The notes beneath the pieces are model-generated. The model saw only the letters and a list, made by a program, of their open reading frames with translations, was not told where the DNA came from and did not search any database. This document shows positions 1 to 60,632 of a stretch of DNA of 64,000 bases, piece after piece (the first letter of the stretch is position 1; every line of letters begins with the position of its first letter). This DNA is from Streptomyces sp. NBC_00162. GTDB lineage: Bacteria > Actinomycetota > Actinomycetes > Streptomycetales > Streptomycetaceae. The position numbers and the translations under genes are program-made. The DNA is taken from assembly GCF_024611995.1 (NCBI RefSeq), contig NZ_CP102509.1, forward strand, positions 1,550,001 to 1,614,000. The letters run 5' to 3'.

Positions 1-593
1 TTCCCGCTGGAGGTCTCCTTCGAGAACGGCAGACTACGCGTGGCTACCACGGCGAGGTCGCGGGCTTCACAGACGAAACGGGCGGTGGCTGCGAGCTGCC
101 TGCCGTCCCTCTGGCGATCGAGGGTTCCGAGCAGAGTTCGGAAGCGGGGGTCCCGCTCAAGGAGACGGAGCGCGGCTGCTGCATACGCCTCGTCATCGAC
201 TGCCTGGATCTCAACACCCAGGGCCCGCACAGCGGGTAGAGCAAGGAAGGTGTTGGCGAACGATTGGATCGTCCCAATGAAGTGTGGATAGGCCAGAAGT
301 CTTCGGCCGGCGGGGGTTGCGGCAAGTCGTGCAGTGATTTCAGTCTTGGCTGTGTTGGTGTGCGAGAGAACGCATATGCCTCTCGTCCGTGAGCTCCAAC
401 CTGCGGCAAGCAGTGCAAGCTTCAGGCCTATGAGGCTGGTTTTCCCCGACCCAGGTGCCGCTTGTAGATCAAGAGAGATCATGCTCTGCAGAAAGTCCCA
501 CTGTTCCTCGTGGGGAAGGGTGAGGCCCATCGCGGAAGCCAGCGCCTCAATCCTATCCTTGGCGAAGGCGGCCTGCTCGTAGGGGATCGTCAT
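1..593 (-). CDS. UvrD/PcrA-like helicase, GajB-type, C-terminus outside window
   Basis: Only the first 197 or so residues are in the window; the frame is open to base 1. The N-terminus carries a Walker A motif APGSGKT at about residues 46-52, followed about 30 residues later by a motif Ia-like segment (LSHTNTAKTEI), the arrangement of superfamily 1A UvrD helicases. The ATG overlaps the stop of the upstream OLD nuclease gene (ATGA, 590-593), so the two are translationally coupled. In Gabija systems GajB is a UvrD-like protein that senses or processes DNA together with the GajA nuclease. Assignment as GajB-like rests on the N-terminal motifs plus the neighbour; the motor and C-terminal domains cannot be seen. 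Confidence 0.85.
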   Translation of the reverse strand, partial: MTIPYEQAAFAKDRIEALASAMGLTLPHEEQWDFLQSMISLDLQAAPGSGKTSLIGLKLALLAAGWSSRTRGICVLSHTNTAKTEITARLAATPAGRRLLAYPHFIGTIQSFANTFLALPAVRALGVEIQAVDDEAYAAAALRLLERDPRFRTLLGTLDRQRDGRQLAATARFVCEARDLAVVATRSLPFSKETSSG

Positions 594-2464
594 GGCTCAC
601 CGCAAAGGTGGGCAAAGGCGCGACGGAGGTACGCCGGGATGTGTGCCTCTGTGAGTGGCGTGGACTTGAGCAGCCTGGCCGCATGCTGGGCTGCGATGGC
701 CTTGCTCGCATTGCCTTTCTTCAGTGGTCGGTAGATTCGCAGGGCCGCCTCAGGACGATTGACGCCCGCGGCCCGCCATTCTTCGACCTCCTGTGCCGCC
801 TCACCATCGAGCTCTGCAAGCCTTTCAGCATCAGGCCACGACCGCTCCGAAGCTCGGGCAGCACGTACGGCCTGGTGCATCACCCTAGCCATGGTCCATG
901 ACGCAGCTGCCAGATCGTACTCGAGGGTCCAGTGGTCGGAAACGAATGTCTTCACATTCCCGTCGTCTCCACGCGTAAGGGCATCAACGTGTGCGGCAAT
1001 CTGCTCCGCAGTCATGTCTGATACACACGGCAGCTCGCCTCTCATGTCCGTGGGAGTACCATCCGGCAGCAGATCTCTGTCGCGGATGCAGGCCACAGTG
1101 ACGGGGATCTGCCGACCCTCCCGCTGGAAGATCCGGCTATACCGGAACAGGCCCGTGTGACCGACATTGACGACGCTGACCCCACTCTCGTTGAAGGAGC
1201 GGCCGACAGCCTGCGCGAGGGCAGGAAGCAGCAACGCCTCCGCATCGCCTTCCACCACAGCGACGGAGCGGGCAAAGAACAGATTGGCCTTGGTCACGTC
1301 AAGGAAGCGAGAAAGGAAAGCATAGTCGCCCGCATCGAGCCGGGTGTGTCCCGGAGCCAGGCTGAACGTGCTGCCACGCGCTACGAGGGTGAGCCATTCG
1401 ACAGGGACCGCGGAGGCCAGGTTGGGGCTGTGGGTAGTGAGAATGACTTGGACGCCTGCGGCCGCTCCGGCCGTCCCGGCCGCCCGCTCGTACAGAAGGT
1501 CCATCACACGAGTCTGCAACTGAGGATGCAGGTGGGCCTCGGGTTCCTCGATGAGCAGCAAAGGCGCGGTCTCGCTGTTCCCCAGCAGTAGCAGCTCGGC
1601 AGCCATGAACAGAGCGTTGTTGTAGCCCAGCCCCCGACGGGTCCATTCGCCAGTACCAGCGAAGAGCGTGAGCTCCAGCCGTTCCAACGCCCGAGCGAGC
1701 GTGGCATCGCCGGCCACCCCGATCTCGCCCCGGAGGACATCTGAGCCAATCGAGAACTTTTCGAGGTAGTTGGTGTTGATGTCGTCGCGAGCCGCAGCGA
1801 CGGCAGCATTGCTTGTGATGTGGTGTTCAGCTCGCCGCAGGATGCCCACAAGGGTGTCGGCTGTGTCGGTCTCAGCGTTGAAGTCGTCCTGCTCTTCCTT
1901 GAGGATCGCCGGATAGCTGGCCAGGATCTGGGAAAGCCTGGATCCACGTCCCGAGCGAAGCTCTGCCTCCGCATCCCGTAGCGGCCTCAGGTAGGTCGCT
2001 TTCAGGAGCTCACGGGCGGCACCGTCCAAAGCGGGTCCCTTGCCGTCCGGTCCGGTCCGCGTGGTGACAGAGACACGATTCGAGCGCTGCGGATCCATGA
2101 GTTGCGCTCTGAATGTGACATACAAGGCGCTGCCACTCGCGTCTGTAGTGAGCAGCTCGAGGAAGGTACCCTTCTCCTCCGCGGAAAGCCCTCTGAACCC
2201 ACAGGTAATCGTGAAGGTGTCCGAGCGGCCCCCGGCCCCGACATGGAAGTCGTCCTTGGTGACGCGGTAGTAGTCCGCTGCAGTTGTGAGGAGGCAGACC
2301 CGGATGGCATCCACGATGGCCGTCTTACCGCTGTCGTTCTCTCCCACTAGTACGGTGGTGCCCGGAGCGAAGTCAACGCGAAGCGAGCGGTCCGCGTCGC
2401 CGCCCTCCTGCCCAGCCGGGCCGAAGATGCGAAAGTTCTCGGCGCGCAGATGAGCCAGATACAC
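590..2464 (-). CDS. OLD-family ATP-dependent nuclease, GajA-like (ABC ATPase plus TOPRIM)
   Basis: 624 residues. The N-terminal half is an ABC-type ATPase: Walker A GENDSGKT at about 41-48, Walker B region LLLIEEPEAHLHP at about 302-314, and the switch histidine in TTHSPN at about 343-348. The C-terminal half is a TOPRIM nuclease: the acidic VVEGDAEALLLP strand at about 403, IRDRD at about 460, and the TLEYDL segment typical of OLD proteins. I chose the GTG at 2464 because GGGGGA lies just upstream and the product then begins YLAHLRAENFRIFG, as OLD proteins usually do; an in-frame ATG at 2491 would add nine residues. Partnered with a UvrD-like gene it matches class 2 OLD/Gabija GajA, a phage-defence nuclease. 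Its GC content is visibly lower than that of neighbouring genes, which suggests acquisition by transfer. Confidence 0.9.
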   Translation of the reverse strand: MYLAHLRAENFRIFGPAGQEGGDADRSLRVDFAPGTTVLVGENDSGKTAIVDAIRVCLLTTAADYYRVTKDDFHVGAGGRSDTFTITCGFRGLSAEEKGTFLELLTTDASGSALYVTFRAQLMDPQRSNRVSVTTRTGPDGKGPALDGAARELLKATYLRPLRDAEAELRSGRGSRLSQILASYPAILKEEQDDFNAETDTADTLVGILRRAEHHITSNAAVAAARDDINTNYLEKFSIGSDVLRGEIGVAGDATLARALERLELTLFAGTGEWTRRGLGYNNALFMAAELLLLGNSETAPLLLIEEPEAHLHPQLQTRVMDLLYERAAGTAGAAAGVQVILTTHSPNLASAVPVEWLTLVARGSTFSLAPGHTRLDAGDYAFLSRFLDVTKANLFFARSVAVVEGDAEALLLPALAQAVGRSFNESGVSVVNVGHTGLFRYSRIFQREGRQIPVTVACIRDRDLLPDGTPTDMRGELPCVSDMTAEQIAAHVDALTRGDDGNVKTFVSDHWTLEYDLAAASWTMARVMHQAVRAARASERSWPDAERLAELDGEAAQEVEEWRAAGVNRPEAALRIYRPLKKGNASKAIAAQHAARLLKSTPLTEAHIPAYLRRAFAHLCGEP

Positions 2465-2638
2465 ACGTTCCCCCGGGCGGCAAGAGTGCACCCCTGAGGA
2501 TGCAGGCGTCGGCTACCGCCCCAAGTTCCCCACCCGTACGCGGCTTGAAGCAGATAATACGGCCGCCAACGTCGTCTTTTCGGTGAATTCCAGAGATTCA
2601 CCCAGGCCCACTGATGCAGTCCCCATCACCGGACCCTC

Positions 2639-4213
2639 TCAGCGCGGTCGGCGCTTCGGAGGGACCGGACCCGGGATGACATCGAGGTCGAGATGTTCCT
2701 TGAACAGGTGAACCAGGTTGGCGCCGTCCAGGAGTTCAAGGCGTCCGTGGTCGTTCGCGAACGCCTCGCTCGCCCGGCCGAACCACGAGGTCGTCACCAG
2801 GATGCCCTTGGCTGCCCGCTTGTGCTCCACGACGCCGGCGAGGGCGGAGACCGATTCGAAGGGCACCACCTTGGCAGTGCGTTTGGCCTGAATGATGCAC
2901 AGGCCTCGCATGACCGGGTCGGTGTTCATCGCCACAGCATCCACACCCTCGTCCTGCGACGGTCGCGTGTTGACACTGTCGAGGCCGATGGCTTCGAACA
3001 ACTGCCGGACCAAATGCTCGAATTCCGTGGGCGAGAGGTCCATCAGCACGGGACGGCTGTCCAGGCCCGCCACGACGTCCATGCTGTCCATCAGCCGGTA
3101 CTTGCTCAAGTCGAAGGTGACCAGCGCGCGCACCGGCTCCAGCTGGTACGGATTCGGTGAGATCAGCGATCGCAGCCGCTTCAGGCAGGCCTGCGGATCG
3201 ACTTGGGTCAGCACCAGTTCGCTGAACTCCTGCCTCCCCGCCTGGAGAGTGATCAGACAGGGGTGCACCTCGCGGCCCGTGGCACGGTCGATGGTCGCCA
3301 CGTGCCCGTTCAGCGCCACGGACCTCACCACCCCGTCGGTGTCCGCCGCGAACAACTCGTGGACGGTCCTCAGCGCCGTCTGCGCCAGTACGGACGCGTA
3401 CAGCTCGTGGCGCTCCTTCTCGGGCCTCGGGACAAGCGTGATCTCGTCGCGCGTCTTCACGTACCGGTAGGCGCGGGCCGCCGGGACCACATCTTCCAGC
3501 GGCAGGTCGATCTCGACCAGCAGGTCTCCCGTATCTGCCTGGTAGGAGACCTGGTGCGCCTTCGGGAAGCCGTGGGGATACGTGGAGGCGGCCAGGACCT
3601 GGTCGATGAACCACTCGACCGCTTCGACGTCGCGCTCCTGGTAGGCGACGCGGCGTGCCTCGATCCCGGCATTCCACTCCTCGATGCGGGCGGCCTCCTG
3701 CTGGTTGCGCTCGTCATGGCGGGCCTGCGCCGCATCCAGCTTCCCGACCCGCTTGTGCTCCTCGCGAGCATGGTCACGCAGCGCCTCGTCGAACCGCTTG
3801 CGTGCAGCCTCCACCTCCGCGTCGTACGAACGGCGCCCGAAGCCGAGCGCGCCCAACCATCCACGCGGCGGCTCGGGCTCGTACTCTCCCCACCGCGGGA
3901 GGGGAACGGGCTTCGTGCGGCTCTTGGACGGCGCGAAGACCGCAGGGACGAAGTGCTGCCTGAGACTGTCGAAGCTCAGGGGCCGGCCCTCCAGCACCGC
4001 CGCACGTAACAGTCCCGCCAGCTGCTCGACGTCGTGCTCGGTCACGCTCGTCTTGTCGACGGCCTCCTGGGCACGTGCGGCCTCGTAGGCAACCTTCTCG
4101 TCGCGCGCCTTGCGCTTGGCCTCCGTCTCAGCAGCCTTCTGGCGCCGCTCACGTTCCTTGGCCTGCCGCGCCCGCTCGCGCGCGTACTCGTCGCCCCCAC
4201 CCGCCACCGCCAC
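2639..4213 (-). CDS. Mrr-type restriction endonuclease with long coiled-coil N-terminus
   Basis: 524 residues from the chosen GTG. The N-terminus is rich in Arg, Glu, Lys and Ala (about residues 5-50 and 140-185) and should form coiled coil. The C-terminal 130 residues hold an Mrr_cat domain: LSPTEFEHLVRQLF, then the D-(E/Q)-K nuclease signature seen as EGVDAVA followed by IIQAKR, then a VSALAGVVEHK helix. Such proteins cleave DNA, often modified DNA. The frame is open to 4396, but the GTG at 4213 has an AGGGA purine stretch upstream and gives the N-terminus known for Streptomyces relatives. It lies 174 bases upstream of the OLD nuclease on the same strand, so it may belong to the same defence islet. 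Confidence 0.8.
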   Translation of the reverse strand: MAVAGGGDEYARERARQAKERERRQKAAETEAKRKARDEKVAYEAARAQEAVDKTSVTEHDVEQLAGLLRAAVLEGRPLSFDSLRQHFVPAVFAPSKSRTKPVPLPRWGEYEPEPPRGWLGALGFGRRSYDAEVEAARKRFDEALRDHAREEHKRVGKLDAAQARHDERNQQEAARIEEWNAGIEARRVAYQERDVEAVEWFIDQVLAASTYPHGFPKAHQVSYQADTGDLLVEIDLPLEDVVPAARAYRYVKTRDEITLVPRPEKERHELYASVLAQTALRTVHELFAADTDGVVRSVALNGHVATIDRATGREVHPCLITLQAGRQEFSELVLTQVDPQACLKRLRSLISPNPYQLEPVRALVTFDLSKYRLMDSMDVVAGLDSRPVLMDLSPTEFEHLVRQLFEAIGLDSVNTRPSQDEGVDAVAMNTDPVMRGLCIIQAKRTAKVVPFESVSALAGVVEHKRAAKGILVTTSWFGRASEAFANDHGRLELLDGANLVHLFKEHLDLDVIPGPVPPKRRPR

Positions 4214-4636
4214 CCCCAGGTCCCTGCACGCCGGTCCGCTCAGGACTTCCCCCACCCAGGGTCGTGCAATCCGCTTGCCTACCCACTCGATCACTGGAAC
4301 GCCCGCAAGCGCCCTCTGCGTCCAGGCCGGGCGAGAAGAACTTTGACGGCTACGCTCTGTAGAACCTGCGGCGCCGTGCCCGAGGAGCCCGTCCACGGTT
4401 CATTCGGGACCATCGGAAGACATCCCTCGACCTGACGAACCGTCATCAAAGTCAGCATTGGGTCAGCATTGGTCCTGGCAAAGCTGACCCCAGCTGGTCA
4501 CACCTGGGAAACGTCGAGAGCCCGGAGAGGGCCTCTCGCAGCCCGCGTCGCCCACCCCGGCGGAACGATCTCCGCGCGGGATACGGCCCCTCTCAGGCTG
4601 ATCTCGACTTGTCGGGCTACTTTGAAAAACCGCAGG
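4214..4636. other. Gene-poor spacer between defence islet and pirin gene
   Basis: About 420 bases without a convincing gene. The Mrr frame stays open as far as 4396, but that extension lacks a good start. The spacer contains a tandem 11-bp duplication (4451-4472) and a small inverted repeat (TGACC/GGTCA) near 4484-4499. No tRNA or integrase gene is visible, so this edge of the islet shows no recognisable attachment site. Confidence 0.5.
4451..4472. repeat. Perfect tandem duplication of an 11-bp unit
   Basis: GTCAGCATTGG occurs twice head to tail with no spacer. It sits in the spacer upstream of the Mrr gene. The function is unknown; it could be a regulator site pair or a simple slippage product. 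Confidence 0.7.
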
Positions 4637-5601
4637 TCAACGCACCCGTCCGCGTGCCTTAAGCGGCCCCGGCGGGAGCTGCGGCGCCGGGATCGGAGGG
4701 CCGTCGTAACCCTTCACTTCGCCGTACCGGGAGCCTTCCATCCAGTCCTTGCGGGCTTGTACGATCTCCTCGTTGCTCCGGCCGATCCAGTTCCAGAACA
4801 TGACGATCTCCTCCTCGAACGGCTCGCCGCCCAGGAGCATCAGGCTCGCGTCCGAGGCTGCCCGCAGGGGAGTTCGGTGCGGCCGCAGCCGAGGTAGAGC
4901 ATCGAGCCCGGGAGGACCGGGACGTCGTCGACGTGGGCCTCGCCCGACATCGACAGGACCGCGTACTCGAAGTCCGGGTCGAGCGGGAGCCGGGTCTCGG
5001 TGCCCGCCGCGAGGGAGAGGTCCGCGCCGACGATCGGGCTGTACGCCGTGCCCGGCGAGGTGGCCGTGTCCAGGGTGCCCAGGATGACCGTCGCGGTCAG
5101 GCCCGGGGAAGTCACCCGCGGGAGCTCCGCGTGGTGCTGGAAGTGCGGTTCCACATCGCGGTGGGCGTCCGGCAGGGCCACCCACAGCTGGGCGCCGTGC
5201 AGGAAGCGGGCGTGCGGGCGCGGGCTCTCCTCGGAGTGGCTGATGCCGCGGCCGGAGGTCATCAGGCCCAGCTCGCGCGGGCGGATCGTGGCGAGGCTGC
5301 CCACGCTGTCGCGGTGCAGCACCTCGCCCTCGTGGAGCCAGCTCACGGTCTGGAGGCCCGAGTGGGGGTGGGGGGCGACCTGCATGCCCGGCTCGTCCGC
5401 GATGTCGTCCGGGCCGTAGTGGTCGACGAAGCACCAGGCGCCCACCATGCGGCGGCCCAGGTTCGGCAGGAGTCGTCGGACCTCGGTGGACTCCCCGAGC
5501 TTGACCGTGCGGGGGCTGAGGAGCTCGCGTACCGGTTCGGCGACGACGAACCCGCGGCCGCCGCAGACGGAGAGTGCGGGCTGGCGATCGAGATTGCTCA
5601 T
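4637..5601 (-). pseudogene. Pirin family protein, frameshifted near the 3' end
   Basis: The main frame (from 5601) encodes a pirin: an N-terminal cupin with VDHYGPDD, APHPHSGLQTVSWL and GRGISHSE metal-binding segments, then a C-terminal cupin. Pirins are iron-binding cupins, some with quercetin dioxygenase-like activity. At 4867-4870 (GGGG on the plus strand) the frame breaks; one additional G would continue directly into the typical pirin tail (LLGGEPFEEEIVMFWNWIGR) and stop at 4637, for about 321 residues. The break is therefore most likely a one-base homopolymer sequencing error. As written, the protein ends early at 4840 with a non-homologous tail of eight residues. Confidence 0.85.
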
Positions 5602-5713
5602 GCGGACAACCTAACGGCGGGACGGCGGCCGCGGTCAGTGGAATGTTCCCCCGGCCTTGCGTGTTGGAGGCACCGGACAGAGACACGAGAGCGGGAAAAG
5701 CGGAAGGGACGCG

Positions 5714-6058
5714 ATGAGCACGCCGTACTTCGAGCACGGGACGGCAGCCGAGCGCTGGGCACGGGCCCGGCTCTTCTTCGACGCGAAGGAGTACGCGACG
5801 GCCGCCCGCATCCTGGACACGCTGGCGGGCGAGGCCCCGGAGCAGCTGGCGCCCCGCCTGCTGCTGGCCCGCGCCTACTACCACTCCGCCCAGCTCTCCC
5901 GCGCCGAGCGCGAGCTCCGCGCCATCCTGGAGCGCTGGCCGGTGGAGGACTACGCACAGCTGATGCTCGGTCGCACACTGGAGCGGAGCGGCCGGGCCGC
6001 CGAGGCCCGCCCGTACCTGCGGATGGCCGCCGCGATGGCCGGTGAGTTCCCGGAGTAG
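5714..6058 (+). CDS. Small tetratricopeptide-repeat protein
   Basis: 114 residues. The start ATG is preceded by GGAAGGGA. The sequence is almost entirely helical hairpins of TPR type (for example AERWARARLFFDAKEYATAARILDTL and a following ARAYYHSAQLSRAERELRAIL), giving about three TPR units. There is no signal peptide. Proteins of this kind are scaffolds for protein contacts; no partner is obvious. It is divergent from the pirin gene, with 112 bases between starts. Confidence 0.85.
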   Translation: MSTPYFEHGTAAERWARARLFFDAKEYATAARILDTLAGEAPEQLAPRLLLARAYYHSAQLSRAERELRAILERWPVEDYAQLMLGRTLERSGRAAEARPYLRMAAAMAGEFPE

Positions 6059-6118
6059 GGGCCGCTCGGCCCGGCGCATGCGGGGCCCGGGCTCCGGCTC
6101 GGATAGCCTGGGTCCCAT

Positions 6119-7321
6119 ATGAACCGCCTGACCACGCCTTTCGGCTCCTACGAGCTCACCCGCTTCCCCGAGGACCCGCGCGACCGGCTCCGTGCCTGGG
6201 ACGCCGCCGACGAGTACCTGCTGCGCCATCTCGACGCCGGTACCGGCGAGCGCGGGCCGGTGGACCTGGCCGGCGCCGGGCAGATCACCGTGCTCGGGGA
6301 CCGCTGGGGGACGCTGACGACAGCGCTCGCCGCGTACCGGCCGACGCAGATCACCGACTCCTCCCTCACCCGCTCCGCCACCGCGGCGAACCTGGACCGG
6401 AACGGGATCGGGACCTCCAAGGCGACGGTCACGCTGCTGACCACCCAGGATCCGCCGCCCGGGAAGATCGACGTACTGCTGGTGCGCGTGCCCAAGAGCC
6501 TGGCGCTGCTCGAGGACCAGCTGCACCGGCTGGCCCCGCACGTGCACGCGGGCACCGTGGTCGTCGGCACCGGCATGGTGAAGGAGATCCACACCTCCAC
6601 CCTGCGGCTCTTCGAGCGGATCCTGGGCCCGACGAAGACCTCGCTCGCCGAGAAGAAGGCGCGGCTGATCTTCTGTACGCCGGGCACCCCCGGCGCCACG
6701 CGGCCCACGACCCCCGGGCCGTGGCCGCTGACGTACACGGTGGACGAGGACGCGGGGTCCGCTTCCGGGCTGACCGTCGTCAACCACGCCGGGATCTTCT
6801 GCGCCGACCGGCTCGACGTCGGCACCCGCTTCTTCCTGCAGAACCTGCCGACCAACACCGACGGCGCCCGGGTCGTGGACCTCGGCTGCGGCAACGGCGT
6901 CGTCGGCGCGGCCGTGCAGGTCCACGACCCGGACGCCGAGGTCGTCTTCACCGACGAGTCCTACCAGGCGGTCGCCTCGGCGCAGGCCACGTACCGGGCG
7001 AACGTCCGCGAGGGCCGGCGGACGGCCGAGTTCCTCGTCGGGGACGGGGTCGCGATGCTGCCCCCGGCCTCCGTGGACCTGGTGCTCAGCAACCCTCCGT
7101 TCCACTCCCACCAGGCGACCACGGACGCGACGGCGCTACGGATGTTCGCGCAGTCGCGCAAGGTGCTGCGGCCGGGCGGCGAGCTGTGGATCGTCGCCAA
7201 TCGGCACATGGGCTACCACACCCACCTGCGCCGGCTGTTCGGCAACAGTGAAGTCGTCGCGAGCGAACCGAAGTTCGTGATTCTGCGGGCAGTCAAGGAG
7301 GACCGGCCGCGGCCCATGTGA
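6119..7321 (+). CDS. RsmC/RlmG-like class I methyltransferase
   Basis: 400 residues with two Rossmann-like halves, as in RlmG/RsmC rRNA guanine-N2 methyltransferases. The C-terminal half has the SAM-binding motif VVDLGCGNGVVG and the catalytic NPPF motif (LVLSNPPFHSH), followed by VLRPGGELWIVANRHMGYH. The N-terminal half lacks these motifs, as expected of the degenerate domain. Probable substrate is a guanine in 16S or 23S rRNA; which one cannot be told from sequence. The TPR gene lies 60 bases upstream in the same direction. Confidence 0.85.
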   Translation: MNRLTTPFGSYELTRFPEDPRDRLRAWDAADEYLLRHLDAGTGERGPVDLAGAGQITVLGDRWGTLTTALAAYRPTQITDSSLTRSATAANLDRNGIGTSKATVTLLTTQDPPPGKIDVLLVRVPKSLALLEDQLHRLAPHVHAGTVVVGTGMVKEIHTSTLRLFERILGPTKTSLAEKKARLIFCTPGTPGATRPTTPGPWPLTYTVDEDAGSASGLTVVNHAGIFCADRLDVGTRFFLQNLPTNTDGARVVDLGCGNGVVGAAVQVHDPDAEVVFTDESYQAVASAQATYRANVREGRRTAEFLVGDGVAMLPPASVDLVLSNPPFHSHQATTDATALRMFAQSRKVLRPGGELWIVANRHMGYHTHLRRLFGNSEVVASEPKFVILRAVKEDRPRPM

Positions 7322-7361
7322 CCTGCCGGTATCCCCGCCGGTATCTCCTACACTCTGGCGC

Positions 7362-8138
7362 GTGACCAACCAGGCAGCCGACGGCGAGGACACGGGCGGC
7401 GACGAGGCTACGCGCGGCGGGCGCTACCGCCGGGAGGACGTGGCCCGCGCGGCCGGCGTCAAGGTGCGCAACCTGCGCTACTACCAGGAGCGCGGGCTGC
7501 TGCCGCCGCCGCGCCGCGAGGGCCGGATCGCCTGGTACTCCGAGGACCACCTGATCCGGCTGCGGCTGATCAGCGACCTGCTGGGGCGCGGCTACACGGT
7601 CAACGGCATCGCCGAACTCCTGCAGGCCTGGGAGGACGGCGGCGGCCTGTCCCGACTGCTGGGCCTGGAACGGGAGATGACCCGGGACTGGGTGCGGGAG
7701 GAGCCGGTGACGATGACCCGGGCCGAGCTGCGGGAGCTGTTCGGCCCCACGGCCACCGCCCAGGACACCCGGCGGGCGGCCGAGCTGGGGTACGTCACGG
7801 TCGACGGGGACCTGGTCACCCACCCGAGCCCCCGGCTGCTGGACGCGACTCTGGCACTGGTGCGCCAGGGCGTGCCCCTTGCGGAGATCCTGGACGCCGG
7901 GGAGTTCGTACAGGCGCAGGCGGCCGCCCTCGCGGACCGGTTCGTCGGACTGTTCCGGCGGCATGTGATCGGCCCGGAGGGGCTGGAGCAGCTTTCGGCC
8001 ACCCAGCTCCAGCACATCACGGCGGCGGTGACGGCCCTGAGGCCGGTGGCCGGGGACGTGGTGGCCACGGAGTTCGCGCGGGCGATGGCGCGCCGGGTGG
8101 ATGCGGAGGTCTCCGAACTGCTGCGTACGGAGCAGTAG
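7362..8138 (+). CDS. MerR family transcriptional regulator
   Basis: 258 residues from a GTG start. After about 20 disordered residues comes a MerR winged helix (YRREDVARAAGVKVRNLRYYQERGLLPPP, about residues 22-50) and the second helix-turn region (LIRLRLISDLLGRGYTVNGIAELL). The C-terminal 150 residues form a helical sensor region without an obvious metal-binding cysteine pair, so the ligand is probably organic. The next operon (DUF6230) follows after 107 bases on the same strand and may be a target; this is inference. Confidence 0.85.
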   Translation: MTNQAADGEDTGGDEATRGGRYRREDVARAAGVKVRNLRYYQERGLLPPPRREGRIAWYSEDHLIRLRLISDLLGRGYTVNGIAELLQAWEDGGGLSRLLGLEREMTRDWVREEPVTMTRAELRELFGPTATAQDTRRAAELGYVTVDGDLVTHPSPRLLDATLALVRQGVPLAEILDAGEFVQAQAAALADRFVGLFRRHVIGPEGLEQLSATQLQHITAAVTALRPVAGDVVATEFARAMARRVDAEVSELLRTEQ

Positions 8139-8170
8139 GAGTCGGCCGAAAAGGTGCGCTCGCACAACCT

Positions 8171-8188
8171 TGCCAACCGTCATTGGCA
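8171..8188. promoter_or_regulatory. Palindromic operator candidate before the DUF6230 operon
   Basis: TGCCAA and TTGGCA form perfect 6-bp arms with a 6-bp spacer, 58 bases before the DUF6230 start. The right arm (TTGGCA) resembles a -35 element. A regulator bound here would cover the promoter. Which protein binds is unknown. Confidence 0.4.
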
Positions 8189-8245
8189 CTCTTACATTCA
8201 ACTCGTCGGTAACAACGGCGCACAGCCGAAATAAGGGACGATCTC

Positions 8246-10049
<1,804 letters not shown>

Positions 10050-10118: not shown

Positions 10119-12872
10119 TCAGCGGTGTGCCGGGAACTCCACCACCTGCTGGTACGTCGGCCTGTTCTGCCAGTTGATCTGCGGGTGGGACAGCCCGCCG
10201 ACCGGGCGCTGGACGATCGAGTCAGCGCACCACTGGTTGCCCGCCGCGCAGGTCCCGTCTGCCGGGTACACCGCCGCCGGGGTGGCCGCTGCCGCCTGCC
10301 TGAGCGTGGCGGTCATGGCCTCGCGGCATGCGGCGAGCGAGCCGCCGCCGCAGTACACCTGGGACGGCGGATCGGCCACCGGCCGGCCGAGGACCATCCG
10401 CAGGTCCTCGTCCGCGTAGCTCCACCAGCCGTACTGGAAGGCCGACCCGGCGTGCGAACCGGTCGGCCCGTGACCCGCGTTGGGCGCCTCGTCGACGGTG
10501 AGCGAGGCACGCAGGGCGTCGTACAGCGGGGCGCCGAGGCCCGGTTTGAACTCGGCCTCGATCAGCAGCGGCCACCAGGCGTCCATGATCCGGATCGCGT
10601 CGGCGTGCGCGTACGTCTTCGAACCCTGGGCGGTCTCCTTGCGCTTGGTACCGCTCGCCTGCCACGCGGCCAGCTTGTCGACGGCCGTGGCGACCGCCGG
10701 GTCGGCGATCGGGCCGCTGCGCAGGACGGCCAGGAGTTCGGGCAGCAGGTTCTCGGCGCGCAGGTCGGTGACGGCGGCTTCGGCCATCGCCTGCGTGAGC
10801 GTGGCGCGGGTGACCCCGCCGGCCGTGACGAGCTGCTTGACCCGGCGGTCGAGGAGGTCGCCGCGGTGGACGGCGCCCATGCCGAAGCCGGCCGCGCTGT
10901 AGTCCTTGGCCTGCTTGTTGTTCCAACTGATGTAGTAGTCCTGTCCGATGGACTGCGGGTGCTCGGCGGGCGGGGTGTAGACGGCGGTGTTCGCGGCCGG
11001 GTCGAAGCCCTGCCACTCGTACTGCTGCCGGGCGTGCACGGGCAGGGCCGCGTCCACGCCCGCCGGACGCACGGGGTTCAACCCGCTGTTGTAGTAGGCG
11101 GCTTCGCGCGAGTCGGCGTAGAACCAGTTGAAGGCGTAGCCGATGTGCTGGGCCGCCTGCTGGAAGGTGCGGGCGTCCTTGACATACGAGGGGTCGTTGA
11201 GCATCTGGAAGCCGATGATCGAGTCGGCCTCGTGACGGTAGGTGGAGCGCAGCGCGGTGTAGGCGACGGGCTTTCCGGCGACCGTGGCGCGGTGGGTCAC
11301 GATGCCGTAGTGCGTGCGCCAGACCTGCATCCGGTAGGAGCCGTCGGGGGTGGGGTCGGCGACCGACTTCTTCCAGGCGTTGGTGTGTTCCAGCTTCTCC
11401 ATGGGGGTGCAGGTGCCGCGGTAGAGGTACGAGGTGCTCGCCTTGGTCGGTGTCCCGCCGCCGGGCTCGCACAGCTCGGCGGCGAAGGTGTCGGTGATGT
11501 CCTGGCCGGCGGAGGTGGCGCTCCAGGCGTAGTCCTGGCCGCGGCCCAGCTGCACGTACATGCTGACACCCGCGAACGAGGCGCCGCGGGCGCTGATGCC
11601 GGGGCCCTGGAGCTCCTGGAGCATGAGGAGCTGGGGCGCGAGGTAGCCGGTCTGCGGCCCGAAGACGGCTACGGGGTGGCCGCTCGCGGTGCGGGCGCCG
11701 GAGACGAGCAGGGCGTTGGACATGCTCTGCTTGACGGGTTTGGGCGGGCTCGCGGCCTCCTTGGCGGTCGCCGCGCCCGTACGGTCGTACACGAGCTGTT
11801 CGGCAACCACGGATCCGGCGTCGGGGAGGGCGGTGCCCTGCGGGTTCGCGGGCTTCTGTGCGTACGGGAAGCTCGTGCCGTCGTGGACGGTGAGCACGGC
11901 CTCGGCGTCGTTGCGCTGGCGGAAGGACTCCCAGACCCTGGTCCCCTCCTCCAGGCCGTACTTCTGCTGCGCGGACAGCAAGGACAGCGCGGCCTGGACC
12001 TCGCCACCGCCTCCGCCGCCGAACAGGCCGCCGACGACGGAGGCGAGGGCGATCAGGTCGGTGATCTTGAAGGGCTGGATCTCGCCGGCGTTGGTGATCG
12101 AGTCGATGTGGCCGGTGAGGACGTACTCGCCGGGGAAGTACCGGCCGCTCTTGGACTGCGTGCGGTAGAGGTTGATGCCGTCGACGTAGGCCTGCGCGTC
12201 CTCCATCGCGAGCCGTCCGCGCTCGCCCTCGGTGGTGCGGATCCGGTCCACCTGAGCCTGTAAGTCGGCCTCGGTGTACGGGGCCTGCGGCCAGAACTGC
12301 TGCTCCAGGCCCTGGTTGGCGAGGGCGCCGCCCGCGAAGGGGGTCAGGTCGCCGCGTCCCACGTGCCGGAAGAGGTCCATCTGCCAGAGCCGGTCCTGGG
12401 CGGCGGCGTAGCCCGCGCCGAAGGAAGTCCCGTAGCGAGTGGTGCCCTTGATGTGAGGGACGCCGGTCTTCTTGTCGCGGGTGATGGTGACGTCGGAGCG
12501 CGGGCTGGCGGTGGATTCGACCTGGTCGGCGGGCACGCCGAAGGCCGCGTTGTTGAAGAAGTCGCTGACCTTGGCGTCGGTCAGACCCGGATACCCGGCC
12601 ACCAGGGAGTCGTAGCGTGCCAGTTGGTCCGAGGTGTGGGCGGGCATCGTGCCGAACGCCTTGTGCAGCAGGATCTGCGCGAGCGTGGCGTTGCCGTTCT
12701 GGCCCGGCGGCAGGACGTCCGAGCACTGGCCGCCGCAGTAGTCGGCGATCGGGAGCGGCACCGGGTCGGCGGCGCCCGCGGCAGCGGCGGCGGGCGGTGT
12801 CAGCAGGGTCGCGCCGAGGGCGATCAGTGCGGCGGCGAGGGCAGTTCTCAGGCGAGCGGTGGGGCGTCGCAT
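10119..12872 (-). CDS. Penicillin acylase family Ntn-hydrolase, secreted
   Basis: 917 residues. A signal peptide (RLRTALAAALIALGATLL, cleaved near AAAAGA) is followed by the alpha chain, with VTITRDKKTGVPHIKGTTRYG and the AQDRLWQMDLFRH helix. The Ntn nucleophile is the serine of MSNALLVSGARTASG at about residue 385, where self-cleavage would create the beta chain. The family hydrolyses acyl amide bonds, including beta-lactam side chains and acyl-homoserine lactones; the substrate here is unknown. Length is slightly above the family norm of 750-850. It is monocistronic and faces a terminator. Confidence 0.9.
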   Translation of the reverse strand: MRRPTARLRTALAAALIALGATLLTPPAAAAAGAADPVPLPIADYCGGQCSDVLPPGQNGNATLAQILLHKAFGTMPAHTSDQLARYDSLVAGYPGLTDAKVSDFFNNAAFGVPADQVESTASPRSDVTITRDKKTGVPHIKGTTRYGTSFGAGYAAAQDRLWQMDLFRHVGRGDLTPFAGGALANQGLEQQFWPQAPYTEADLQAQVDRIRTTEGERGRLAMEDAQAYVDGINLYRTQSKSGRYFPGEYVLTGHIDSITNAGEIQPFKITDLIALASVVGGLFGGGGGGEVQAALSLLSAQQKYGLEEGTRVWESFRQRNDAEAVLTVHDGTSFPYAQKPANPQGTALPDAGSVVAEQLVYDRTGAATAKEAASPPKPVKQSMSNALLVSGARTASGHPVAVFGPQTGYLAPQLLMLQELQGPGISARGASFAGVSMYVQLGRGQDYAWSATSAGQDITDTFAAELCEPGGGTPTKASTSYLYRGTCTPMEKLEHTNAWKKSVADPTPDGSYRMQVWRTHYGIVTHRATVAGKPVAYTALRSTYRHEADSIIGFQMLNDPSYVKDARTFQQAAQHIGYAFNWFYADSREAAYYNSGLNPVRPAGVDAALPVHARQQYEWQGFDPAANTAVYTPPAEHPQSIGQDYYISWNNKQAKDYSAAGFGMGAVHRGDLLDRRVKQLVTAGGVTRATLTQAMAEAAVTDLRAENLLPELLAVLRSGPIADPAVATAVDKLAAWQASGTKRKETAQGSKTYAHADAIRIMDAWWPLLIEAEFKPGLGAPLYDALRASLTVDEAPNAGHGPTGSHAGSAFQYGWWSYADEDLRMVLGRPVADPPSQVYCGGGSLAACREAMTATLRQAAAATPAAVYPADGTCAAGNQWCADSIVQRPVGGLSHPQINWQNRPTYQQVVEFPAHR

Positions 12873-59438: not shown

Positions 59439-60632
59439 CTACTTCGCCACGATGAGGCCGTCCTTGGCCGCGCCGCGGCTGAGGACCGCCTCGGTGATGG
59501 CGTCCTGAGCGGTCTCGTAGTCGCTCTGGTCGGGATCCTTGGCCAGAGCGGCGGGGAGGTTGACGACCCGGCCGATGGAGAGGTCCATCATCTGCGGGAC
59601 GAACTCGGCCTTGGTGACCTGCCAGCGCTGTCCGGCGGCGGCCGGCGGGGCGAAGGTGAAGCGGCCGATCGATCCGTAGTTGCCGCGCATGTCCCGCGCA
59701 CCCGAGTAGTTGAACATCTCACCCGCGACCTGGTCTCCCATGCCGTAGATGATCCACGTCCCGTTGACCTTCTCGTACGGCTGCGGGATGTGCGCGTGGG
59801 TGCCCAGGATCATGTCGATGTCCGGGCGCCCGCCCGTCTGCGAGGCGGTCAGCGCCTTGCCGAGGGAGAGCTGCTTCTCGTCCGGTTCGGTCTGCCACTC
59901 GGTGCCCCAGTGGAGGCTGACCAGCACCACGTCCGCGCCCGCCTTCCGGGCCGCCCGCGCGTCCGCGACGATCTTGTCCTGTTCCATCAGGTTGACCGCC
60001 CACGGCTGTCCCGGCGGCAGCGGGTAGCCGTTGGTGTCGTAGGTGTACGCGAGGTGCGCGACCTTGGCGGAGCCGGCCGTGTACGTGGTCACCGTGGCCG
60101 CCTCCGCCGCCGTACGGGCCGAGCCGGCGTGCTTCAGGCCGACCTTGTCGAACCGGTCCAGCGTGCGGCGCAGCCCGTCGGCCCCGTCGTCCAGGGTGTG
60201 GTTGGAGGCCGTGGAGCAGCCGTCGTATCCGGTCTCCTTCAGCGCGTCGGCGACGCTCGGCGGGGAGACGAAGGCCGGGTAGCCGGAGAAGGGCCCGCCC
60301 TCTTCCCCGTAGATGGTCTCCATGTGGCAGAGGGCCAGGTCGGCCCCGGAGACCACGGGCTTGACGCCGGAGAACATCGGCCGGAAGTCGTGCCCGTCGC
60401 CGTCCGCGTCGTTGGCCGCCCGCTGGATGACCGAGGTGTGGGGCAGTACGTCGCCGCTCGCGACCAGCGTGAACCCCTTGGCCGCGGGAGACCCGGCGGC
60501 ACTGGAGGCAACCGGTCCGCCGGATTCACCCAGGCGTGCCGGTGCCGATTCCCCCGCGGCCGAACAGCCTGCGGCCGCCGACAGCAGGAGGGCCGACAGG
60601 AGCGCGGCAGCCTGTCGGGTGCGCTTGGTCAT
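59439..60632 (-). CDS. CapA family lipoprotein (metallophosphatase fold)
   Basis: 397 residues. Lipoprotein signal ALLSALLLSAAAGCSAAG. The CapA/PgsA domain shows VASGDVLPHTSV, the SNHTLDDGADGL loop, VVLVSLHWGTEW and ILGTHAHIPQPYEKVNGTWIIYGMGD. CapA proteins take part in poly-gamma-glutamate or capsule export, but many actinobacterial members have unknown roles. The capBC genes are absent nearby. The 299 bases upstream up to the sigma gene contain an A/T-rich stretch around 60645-60705 that probably holds the promoter. Confidence 0.85.
   Translation of the reverse strand: MTKRTRQAAALLSALLLSAAAGCSAAGESAPARLGESGGPVASSAAGSPAAKGFTLVASGDVLPHTSVIQRAANDADGDGHDFRPMFSGVKPVVSGADLALCHMETIYGEEGGPFSGYPAFVSPPSVADALKETGYDGCSTASNHTLDDGADGLRRTLDRFDKVGLKHAGSARTAAEAATVTTYTAGSAKVAHLAYTYDTNGYPLPPGQPWAVNLMEQDKIVADARAARKAGADVVLVSLHWGTEWQTEPDEKQLSLGKALTASQTGGRPDIDMILGTHAHIPQPYEKVNGTWIIYGMGDQVAGEMFNYSGARDMRGNYGSIGRFTFAPPAAAGQRWQVTKAEFVPQMMDLSIGRVVNLPAALAKDPDQSDYETAQDAITEAVLSRGAAKDGLIVAK

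What the first reader, a model, noticed from the sequence alone, without database searches (positions are those of the whole stretch)
1..2464. Gabija-like OLD nuclease/UvrD helicase pair at the window edge
An OLD-family ATPase-TOPRIM gene overlaps (ATGA) a UvrD-like helicase gene, the defining layout of Gabija anti-phage systems. Both carry intact visible motifs, and the region is less GC-rich than its surroundings. Actinobacterial versions with a 624-residue nuclease are less studied than the Bacillus type.
Basis: partly seen in the sequence, partly recalled or inferred. Interest (0 to 1): 0.7.

Follow-up and report, generated by a model that had tools for sequence, protein, structure and literature searches.

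The report
Ordinary Gabija anti-phage gene pair
This soil-bacterium chromosome carries a standard two-gene Gabija system, a DNA-cutting protein and a partner helicase thought to stop invading viruses; it looks complete but is an ordinary example of a known kind.

Summary
Window 590-2464 (-) encodes a 624-residue OLD-family ATPase-TOPRIM protein; the downstream helicase overlaps it by ATGA and, in the host genome, is complete (634 aa). PADLOC calls them GajA (7.9e-186) and GajB (1.4e-128). The class 2 OLD catalytic residues and the helicase motifs are intact. RecF, AddA and RecB models score far below their cut-offs. The pair is GC-poor (62% against 72% for the window) and sits in a 9.9-kb stretch that is 1.8 kb in the best-scoring relative, so it was probably acquired horizontally. 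The Mrr-like restriction gene just upstream is not a conserved partner. This is a genuine Gabija system of an actinobacterial subtype, with a GajB about 140 residues longer than the solved Bacillus one. One point is worth a specialist's time: the host has an AdnAB-type pair and no RecC match, so the proposal that Gabija spares DNA handled by RecBCD could be tested in a host without RecBCD. Interest is low.

The parts
590..2464 (-). gajA: class 2 OLD-family ATPase-TOPRIM nuclease, 624 aa from GTG at 2464 (longest frame starts at 2491)
   Evidence: PADLOC GajA PDLC00099 7.9e-186; Pfam AAA_15 and OLD-like_TOPRIM above cut-off; Walker A GENDSGKT 41-48, Walker B LLLIEEPEAHLHP 302-314, H-loop 343-347; K47, E306, E307, H345, E405, E409, D462, D464, T513, E515, K588 identical in 26 of 26 aligned sequences, itself included
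1..593 (-). gajB, first 197 codons; the gene continues outside the window to C1:1548689 (634 aa in all) and overlaps gajA by ATGA
   Evidence: PADLOC GajB PDLC00147 1.4e-128 over residues 14-629 of the complete protein; UvrD-helicase PF00580 above cut-off; motifs I, Ia, Ib/Ic, II, III, IV, V, VI found and largely conserved in 24 aligned sequences, itself included
2639..4396 (-). neighbouring gene, not part of Gabija: Mrr-type (type IV) restriction endonuclease, same direction, 174 bp upstream of gajA; its true start is probably downstream of 4396
   Evidence: PADLOC mREase_IV PDLC03663 9.2e-192, Mrr_cat PF04471 4.8e-27; close relatives in 8 of 8 fetched loci (79-86% in the best piece) lie without Gabija

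Best explanation
The two genes are a Gabija anti-phage system. Shown here: an OLD-type ABC ATPase joined to a TOPRIM nuclease with the class 2 OLD catalytic residues, overlapping a complete SF1A (UvrD-like) helicase gene. Inferred from the Bacillus and Pseudomonas systems: GajA forms a tetramer that binds GajB into one complex, which stays inactive in a healthy cell. On infection it acts on phage DNA, sensed either through falling nucleotide levels or through DNA ends not handled by the host end-processing enzyme, and the TOPRIM centre cuts or blocks that DNA by two-metal catalysis before it can circularise or replicate. In this host the end-processing enzyme appears to be AdnAB, not RecBCD.
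For: GajA and GajB models are the top PADLOC hits. [quoted passage not shown] Seven residues assigned to Burkholderia OLD catalysis (E400, E404, D455, D457, T506, E508, K562) correspond to E405, E409, D462, D464, T513, E515 and, by inference, K588, each identical in 26 of 26 aligned sequences. The profile alignment to chain 6nk8 places the EGDAE, DxD and TLE stretches in register; the lysine lies outside it. GajB lies next to GajA in 5 of 5 near-full copies: own, L003, L052, L053, L054. Within the genome the GajB model reaches 1.0e-127 here and 1.4e-12 at the next place. The host has two adjacent frames with helicase and PDDEXK matches that match both chains of 6ppj/6ppr/6ppu, and no RecC match.
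Against: No activity was measured and no structure could be predicted. Similarity to the solved Bacillus proteins is low. For GajA the best PDB profile hit is another OLD endonuclease, 6p74 (1e-17), then class 2 OLD domains; Bacillus GajA comes at 7.3e-11 (3.2e-4 by single sequence). For GajB the PDB profile hits UvrD, Rep, PcrA, RecB and AddA chains first (from 1.1e-8) and Bacillus GajB only at 0.05. GajB is 634 aa against 493-499 for the solved chains. NCBIfam's best hits for GajA are retron PtuA (46 bits) and the Eco8 effector (35.5), both far below cut-off. GajB models hit 11 of 14 control genomes, so a hit alone is not specific. Four of the eight genomes of the genus search with this GajA subtype hold only fragments, without GajB, and a fifth (G023) has a frame break.
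Confidence: 0.9

Rival explanations
1. A three-gene composite defence operon, mrr-gajA-gajB, in which the Mrr-like type IV restriction enzyme works together with Gabija.
For: The three genes run in one direction with 174 bp between mrr and gajA; no promoter-like site was found in 2300-4900 (0 found, 0.2 expected), though the scan does not cover actinobacterial promoters well.
Against: None of the four other near-full GajA loci has mrr in the fetched stretch, and none of the eight fetched loci with close mrr relatives has GajA or GajB. GC3 is 0.85 for mrr and 0.72 and 0.68 for the pair. Mrr-type matches at 1e-20 occur in 180 of 392 genomes, most of the listed ones at 34-40% identity, so chance neighbourhood is plausible.
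Confidence: 0.06
2. A RecF/AddA-like DNA repair module rather than a defence system.
For: ABC ATPase plus UvrD-like helicase is a combination also used in repair; weak hits to RecF (21.5 bits), RecB (23.7) and AddA (21.5).
Against: These lie far below the cut-offs of 172, 696 and 708 bits. The TOPRIM domain matches OLD-like_TOPRIM. The genome has its own AdnAB-type pair elsewhere. Distribution is patchy: 16 of 392 genomes match at 1e-20, eight of them with this subtype.
Confidence: 0.02
3. A silent or decaying Gabija copy with no protective activity.
For: Fragments of the same GajA without GajB are found in four other genomes, and one copy has a frame break.
Against: Here both frames are full length without stops, and every tested catalytic residue and motif is present.
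Confidence: 0.05

Closest known systems
Gabija of Bacillus cereus VD045 (GajA/GajB; PDB 8jq9, 8jqb, 8sm3, 8u7i and others)
   Same: OLD ATPase-TOPRIM nuclease plus UvrD-like helicase; TOPRIM glutamate and DxD as described for GajA, and the Walker A and DEXQD box described for GajB (passages of PMC10781630)
   Different: Only distant sequence similarity; GajA 624 aa against about 578, GajB 634 aa against 493-499; complex formation, sequence specificity and nucleotide inhibition not tested here
Class 2 OLD nucleases of Burkholderia and Xanthomonas (PDB 6nk8, 6njv)
   Same: Helicase gene in tandem (passages of PMC6755086); best single-sequence PDB matches of this GajA (8.6e-12 for 6njv, 2.8e-11 for 6nk8); two-metal residues in register with 6nk8
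   Different: The PDB chains are C-terminal pieces of 230 aa; I saw no phage test of them in the passages read
PADLOC Gabija models PDLC00099 (GajA) and PDLC00147 (GajB)
   Same: Nearly full-length matches to profiles of 626 and 637 positions, so this subtype is already catalogued
   Different: No difference found; the models themselves say nothing about experimental tests
Gabija of Pseudomonas aeruginosa PA14 (PMC12407980; abstract, Discussion and passages seen)
   Same: Same system type by name; proposed to act on linear DNA lacking RecBCD. Its sequence was not compared here
   Different: This host has no RecC match and an AdnAB-type pair instead

Membership tests
Gabija | GajA: OLD-family ABC ATPase plus TOPRIM nuclease | tested here: met
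   PADLOC GajA 7.9e-186; Pfam AAA_15 and OLD-like_TOPRIM above cut-offs
Gabija | GajB: UvrD-like SF1A helicase encoded next to GajA | tested here: met
   PADLOC GajB 1.4e-128, residues 14-629; eight motifs present; ATGA overlap
Gabija | Intact TOPRIM catalytic residues (E, DxD, metal B residues, lysine) | tested here: met
   E405, E409, D462, D464, T513, E515, K588 identical in 26 of 26 aligned sequences; register with 6nk8 seen for all but the lysine
Gabija | GajA4-GajB4 complex | not testable with these tools
   Structure prediction switched off
Gabija | Phage protection requiring both genes | not testable with these tools
   Needs an infection experiment
[quoted passage not shown]
RecF/AddA/RecB-type repair module | Match to the curated RecF, AddA or RecB model above its cut-off | tested here: not met
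   21.5 of 172, 21.5 of 708 and 23.7 of 696 bits
Composite mrr-gajA-gajB unit | Conserved gene neighbourhood across genomes | tested here: not met
   0 of 4 other near-full GajA loci carry mrr in the fetched stretch; 0 of 8 fetched mrr loci carry gajA or gajB

The most novel reading that the evidence does not exclude
This actinobacterial Gabija subtype, with its longer GajB, tells self from non-self by the presence of AdnAB on DNA ends instead of RecBCD, so it restricts phages that keep AdnAB away and is toxic to, or misdirected in, an adnAB mutant.
Probability: 0.25. Interest if true: 0.5.

Novelty: new member of a known kind. Interest (0 to 1): 0.2.

Why it matters
As a system it adds one more Gabija locus to a large family (7,020 of the 8,000 candidates scored match this GajA at E <= 1e-3, which must include other OLD proteins). 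Its use would be as a tool. The proposal that Gabija spares DNA occupied by RecBCD comes from Pseudomonas; [quoted passage not shown] A Gabija copy in a host that has an AdnAB-type pair and no RecC match makes that generalisation directly testable.

Tried and rejected
Structure prediction of GajA and GajB was attempted and is switched off, so there is no complex model, no fold search and no comparison with the GajA tetramer.

A conserved mrr-gajA-gajB unit was considered and rejected on neighbourhood evidence.

A defence hotspot beside the pirin gene was considered. In 13 relatives I called 107 ORFs near the site and scanned 73 of them; dropped were the pirin-side ORFs, most ORFs under about 165 aa and one of 225 aa. 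PADLOC at 1e-10 matched 15 models: five members hit mad3, three mad8, two PDC-M01A; one member each hit six cyclase models, two 1TM effector models, two PDC-M37B models, PprDinG and DolB. Which locus held which hit is not shown by that call. The mad3 hits may reflect the five ABC transporters (inference). The 25 most frequent Pfam families (of 72) are mostly metabolic and transport families. Not a clear hotspot.

Direct repeats that could be attachment sites at the island ends were sought; nothing convincing was found. Integrases were not searched for systematically.

The genome-collection scan gave only one relative, so neighbourhood statistics rest mainly on the genus search and are small.

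Full report
What is there. The window is C1:1550001-1614000 of a 9.02-Mb, two-contig genome. The minus-strand ORF at 590-2491 most likely starts at the GTG at 2464, which has GGGGGA a few bases upstream and gives 624 aa, the length of a near-identical database protein, P0001. The next gene starts with the ATG at 593, overlapping the nuclease stop (ATGA). The window shows only its first 197 codons. The adjoining host DNA (L002) completes it as a 634-aa frame at L002:12689-14593, i.e. C1:1548689-1550593.

Identity. PADLOC gives GajA (PDLC00099, 7.9e-186, 617.7 bits) for the first protein and GajB (PDLC00147, 1.4e-128, residues 14-629) for the complete second protein. Pfam gives AAA_15, AAA_21, OLD-like_TOPRIM and DUF2813 above cut-off for GajA and UvrD-helicase for GajB. 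GajB models also match 11 of 14 control genomes, so I looked at the margin: in this genome seven places match, this locus at 1.0e-127 and the next at 1.4e-12. In NCBIfam no model reaches its cut-off for either protein: for GajA the best are retron PtuA (46 bits of 500) and the Eco8 effector (35.5 of 250), for GajB uvrD (35.6 of 1144); RecF, AddA and RecB stay at 21.5, 21.5 and 23.7 bits against 172, 708 and 696.

Anatomy. In an alignment of 26 GajA proteins, itself included (A2), K47 of Walker A, E306/E307 of Walker B, H345, and E405, E409, D462, D464, T513, E515 and K588 are identical in all 26. Class 2 OLD work assigns E400, D455 and D457 to metal A, E404, T506 and E508 to metal B, and K562 to catalysis in the Burkholderia enzyme (passages of PMC6755086). 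The profile alignment to chain 6nk8 puts the EGDAE, DxD and TLE stretches in register; the lysine lies beyond that alignment and its equivalence is inferred. In 24 aligned GajB proteins, itself included (A3), motifs I, Ia, Ib/Ic, II (DEMQD in this protein), III, IV, V and VI begin at residues 46, 76, 105, 244, 271, 303, 542 and 595, with most positions invariant; the motif labels are recalled. About 230 residues separate motifs IV and V, where UvrD-like helicases carry subdomain 2B (recalled).

Distance from the characterised systems. The best single-sequence PDB matches of GajA are class 2 OLD nuclease domains (8.6e-12, 2.8e-11); Bacillus GajA follows at 3.2e-4. With the profile the best is another OLD endonuclease, 6p74 (1e-17), and Bacillus GajA comes at 7.3e-11. 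For GajB the profile finds UvrD, Rep, PcrA, RecB and AddA chains first and Bacillus GajB only at 0.05; those GajB chains are 493-499 aa long, against 634 here. This is a diverged Gabija subtype, but PADLOC already models it over nearly its full length.

Distribution. In 392 genomes of the genus, the own one included, 16 have a GajA-like match at 1e-20. Eight are of this subtype (65% identity or more): the own genome, G023, G311 and G334, and fragments in G090, G252, G067 and G291. The other eight, at 30-38%, were not examined further. GajB lies beside GajA in 5 of 5 near-full copies: own; L003 from Rhodococcus globerulus (only residues 109-630 of GajA aligned); L052; L053; L054. L052 has a frame break near residue 59. 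None of the four fragment loci has GajB in the 17 kb fetched. In the protein database some GajA and GajB hits share organism and contig length, e.g. P0008 with P0123 and P0006 with P0134.

Neighbourhood and origin. The Mrr-type restriction gene at 2639-4396 (PADLOC mREase_IV 9.2e-192) runs in the same direction, but none of the four other near-full GajA loci has it in the fetched stretch, and none of eight fetched loci with its close relatives has Gabija. Mrr-type matches at 1e-20 occur in 180 of 392 genomes, most of the listed ones at 34-40% identity; I fetched eight of the closest. GC3 is 0.72 for gajA and 0.68 for gajB, 0.85 for mrr, and 0.905 on average (sd 0.049) for the 40 other called ORFs of the window, mrr included. 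In the relative that scores best over window 4500-9000 (G039, 88% identity) homology stops at window coordinate -5308 and resumes at 4613, with 1.83 kb in place of our 9.9 kb. In the other 12 relatives the right flank matches and no collinear match to our left side was found in the fetched 10-17 kb (one 355-bp inverted match in L085). Horizontal acquisition of the pair is the simplest reading. The only tRNA gene of the window is far away (60441-60541), and no convincing flanking repeat was found; integrases were not searched for systematically.

How it works. For the Bacillus system (abstracts and passages only): GajA and GajB form a 4:4 ring, both genes are needed, and the nuclease is inhibited by nucleotides, with a preference for circular DNA (PMC10822852; see also PMC10781630). 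For Pseudomonas PA14 a different model is proposed: Gabija blocks circularisation of linear DNA that lacks RecBCD, and the authors present this as contradicting the nucleotide-depletion model (PMC12407980, abstract and Discussion). I cannot decide between them here. The host does bear on the second model: it has no RecC match (also 0 of 4 carriers, itself included; the same model finds RecC in E. coli only among 14 controls), and it has two adjacent frames of 1161 and 1174 aa, both with helicase and PDDEXK matches. These match the B and A chains of 6ppj/6ppr/6ppu at up to 3.2e-185 and 5.3e-128; that these entries are mycobacterial AdnAB is recalled. The PA14 authors mention AdnAB as an analogous system.

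Literature. Five searches of the held library (all but one search list fewer papers than they found) showed no experimental study of an actinobacterial Gabija in their listings. Two listed papers come near and were not read: a Rhodococcus erythropolis genome that mentions Gabija (PMC12915292) and a Mycolicibacterium Druantia system that blocks phage DNA circularisation (PMC13316683). The survey of actinobacterial defence systems PMC10482375 does not use the word Gabija in its held main text (passages seen). Subscription papers are mostly not covered.

Verdict. The finding is real and correctly named. It is a new member of a known kind, of low interest in itself, with one useful experimental angle.

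Noticed in passing
L002:9214-12046 (about window -4786 to -1954, outside the window): A cyclophane RiPP cluster lies beside gajB: AmcB-type radical SAM maturase (NF041718, 446 bits, cut-off 425), AmcA precursor (NF041721, 72.5, cut-off 40) with a 39-nt tandem repeat at 10474-10551, a pentapeptide-repeat protein and an unassigned protein. The maturase and the last two proteins gave no match in the other fetched Gabija loci (the precursor was not a query).
   Followed up: partly
window 4277-4396: The first ~40 codons of the mrr ORF lie in DNA that two relatives without mrr at this site share as flank (homology down to 4347 in L084 and 4277 in L089), and the ten best longer mrr matches align only from residue 40-65 on; the true start is probably downstream and an insertion boundary may lie near here.
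   Followed up: partly
L055, L056, L057, L058: Four genomes hold fragments of the same GajA subtype without GajB, apparently relics of lost Gabija systems.
   Followed up: partly
L102:5305-12350 (-): AdnAB-type pair of helicase-nucleases of the host.
   Followed up: yes
own genome (G000), place not listed: The own genome has two matches to the Mrr-type protein at 1e-20; the second was not examined.
   Followed up: no
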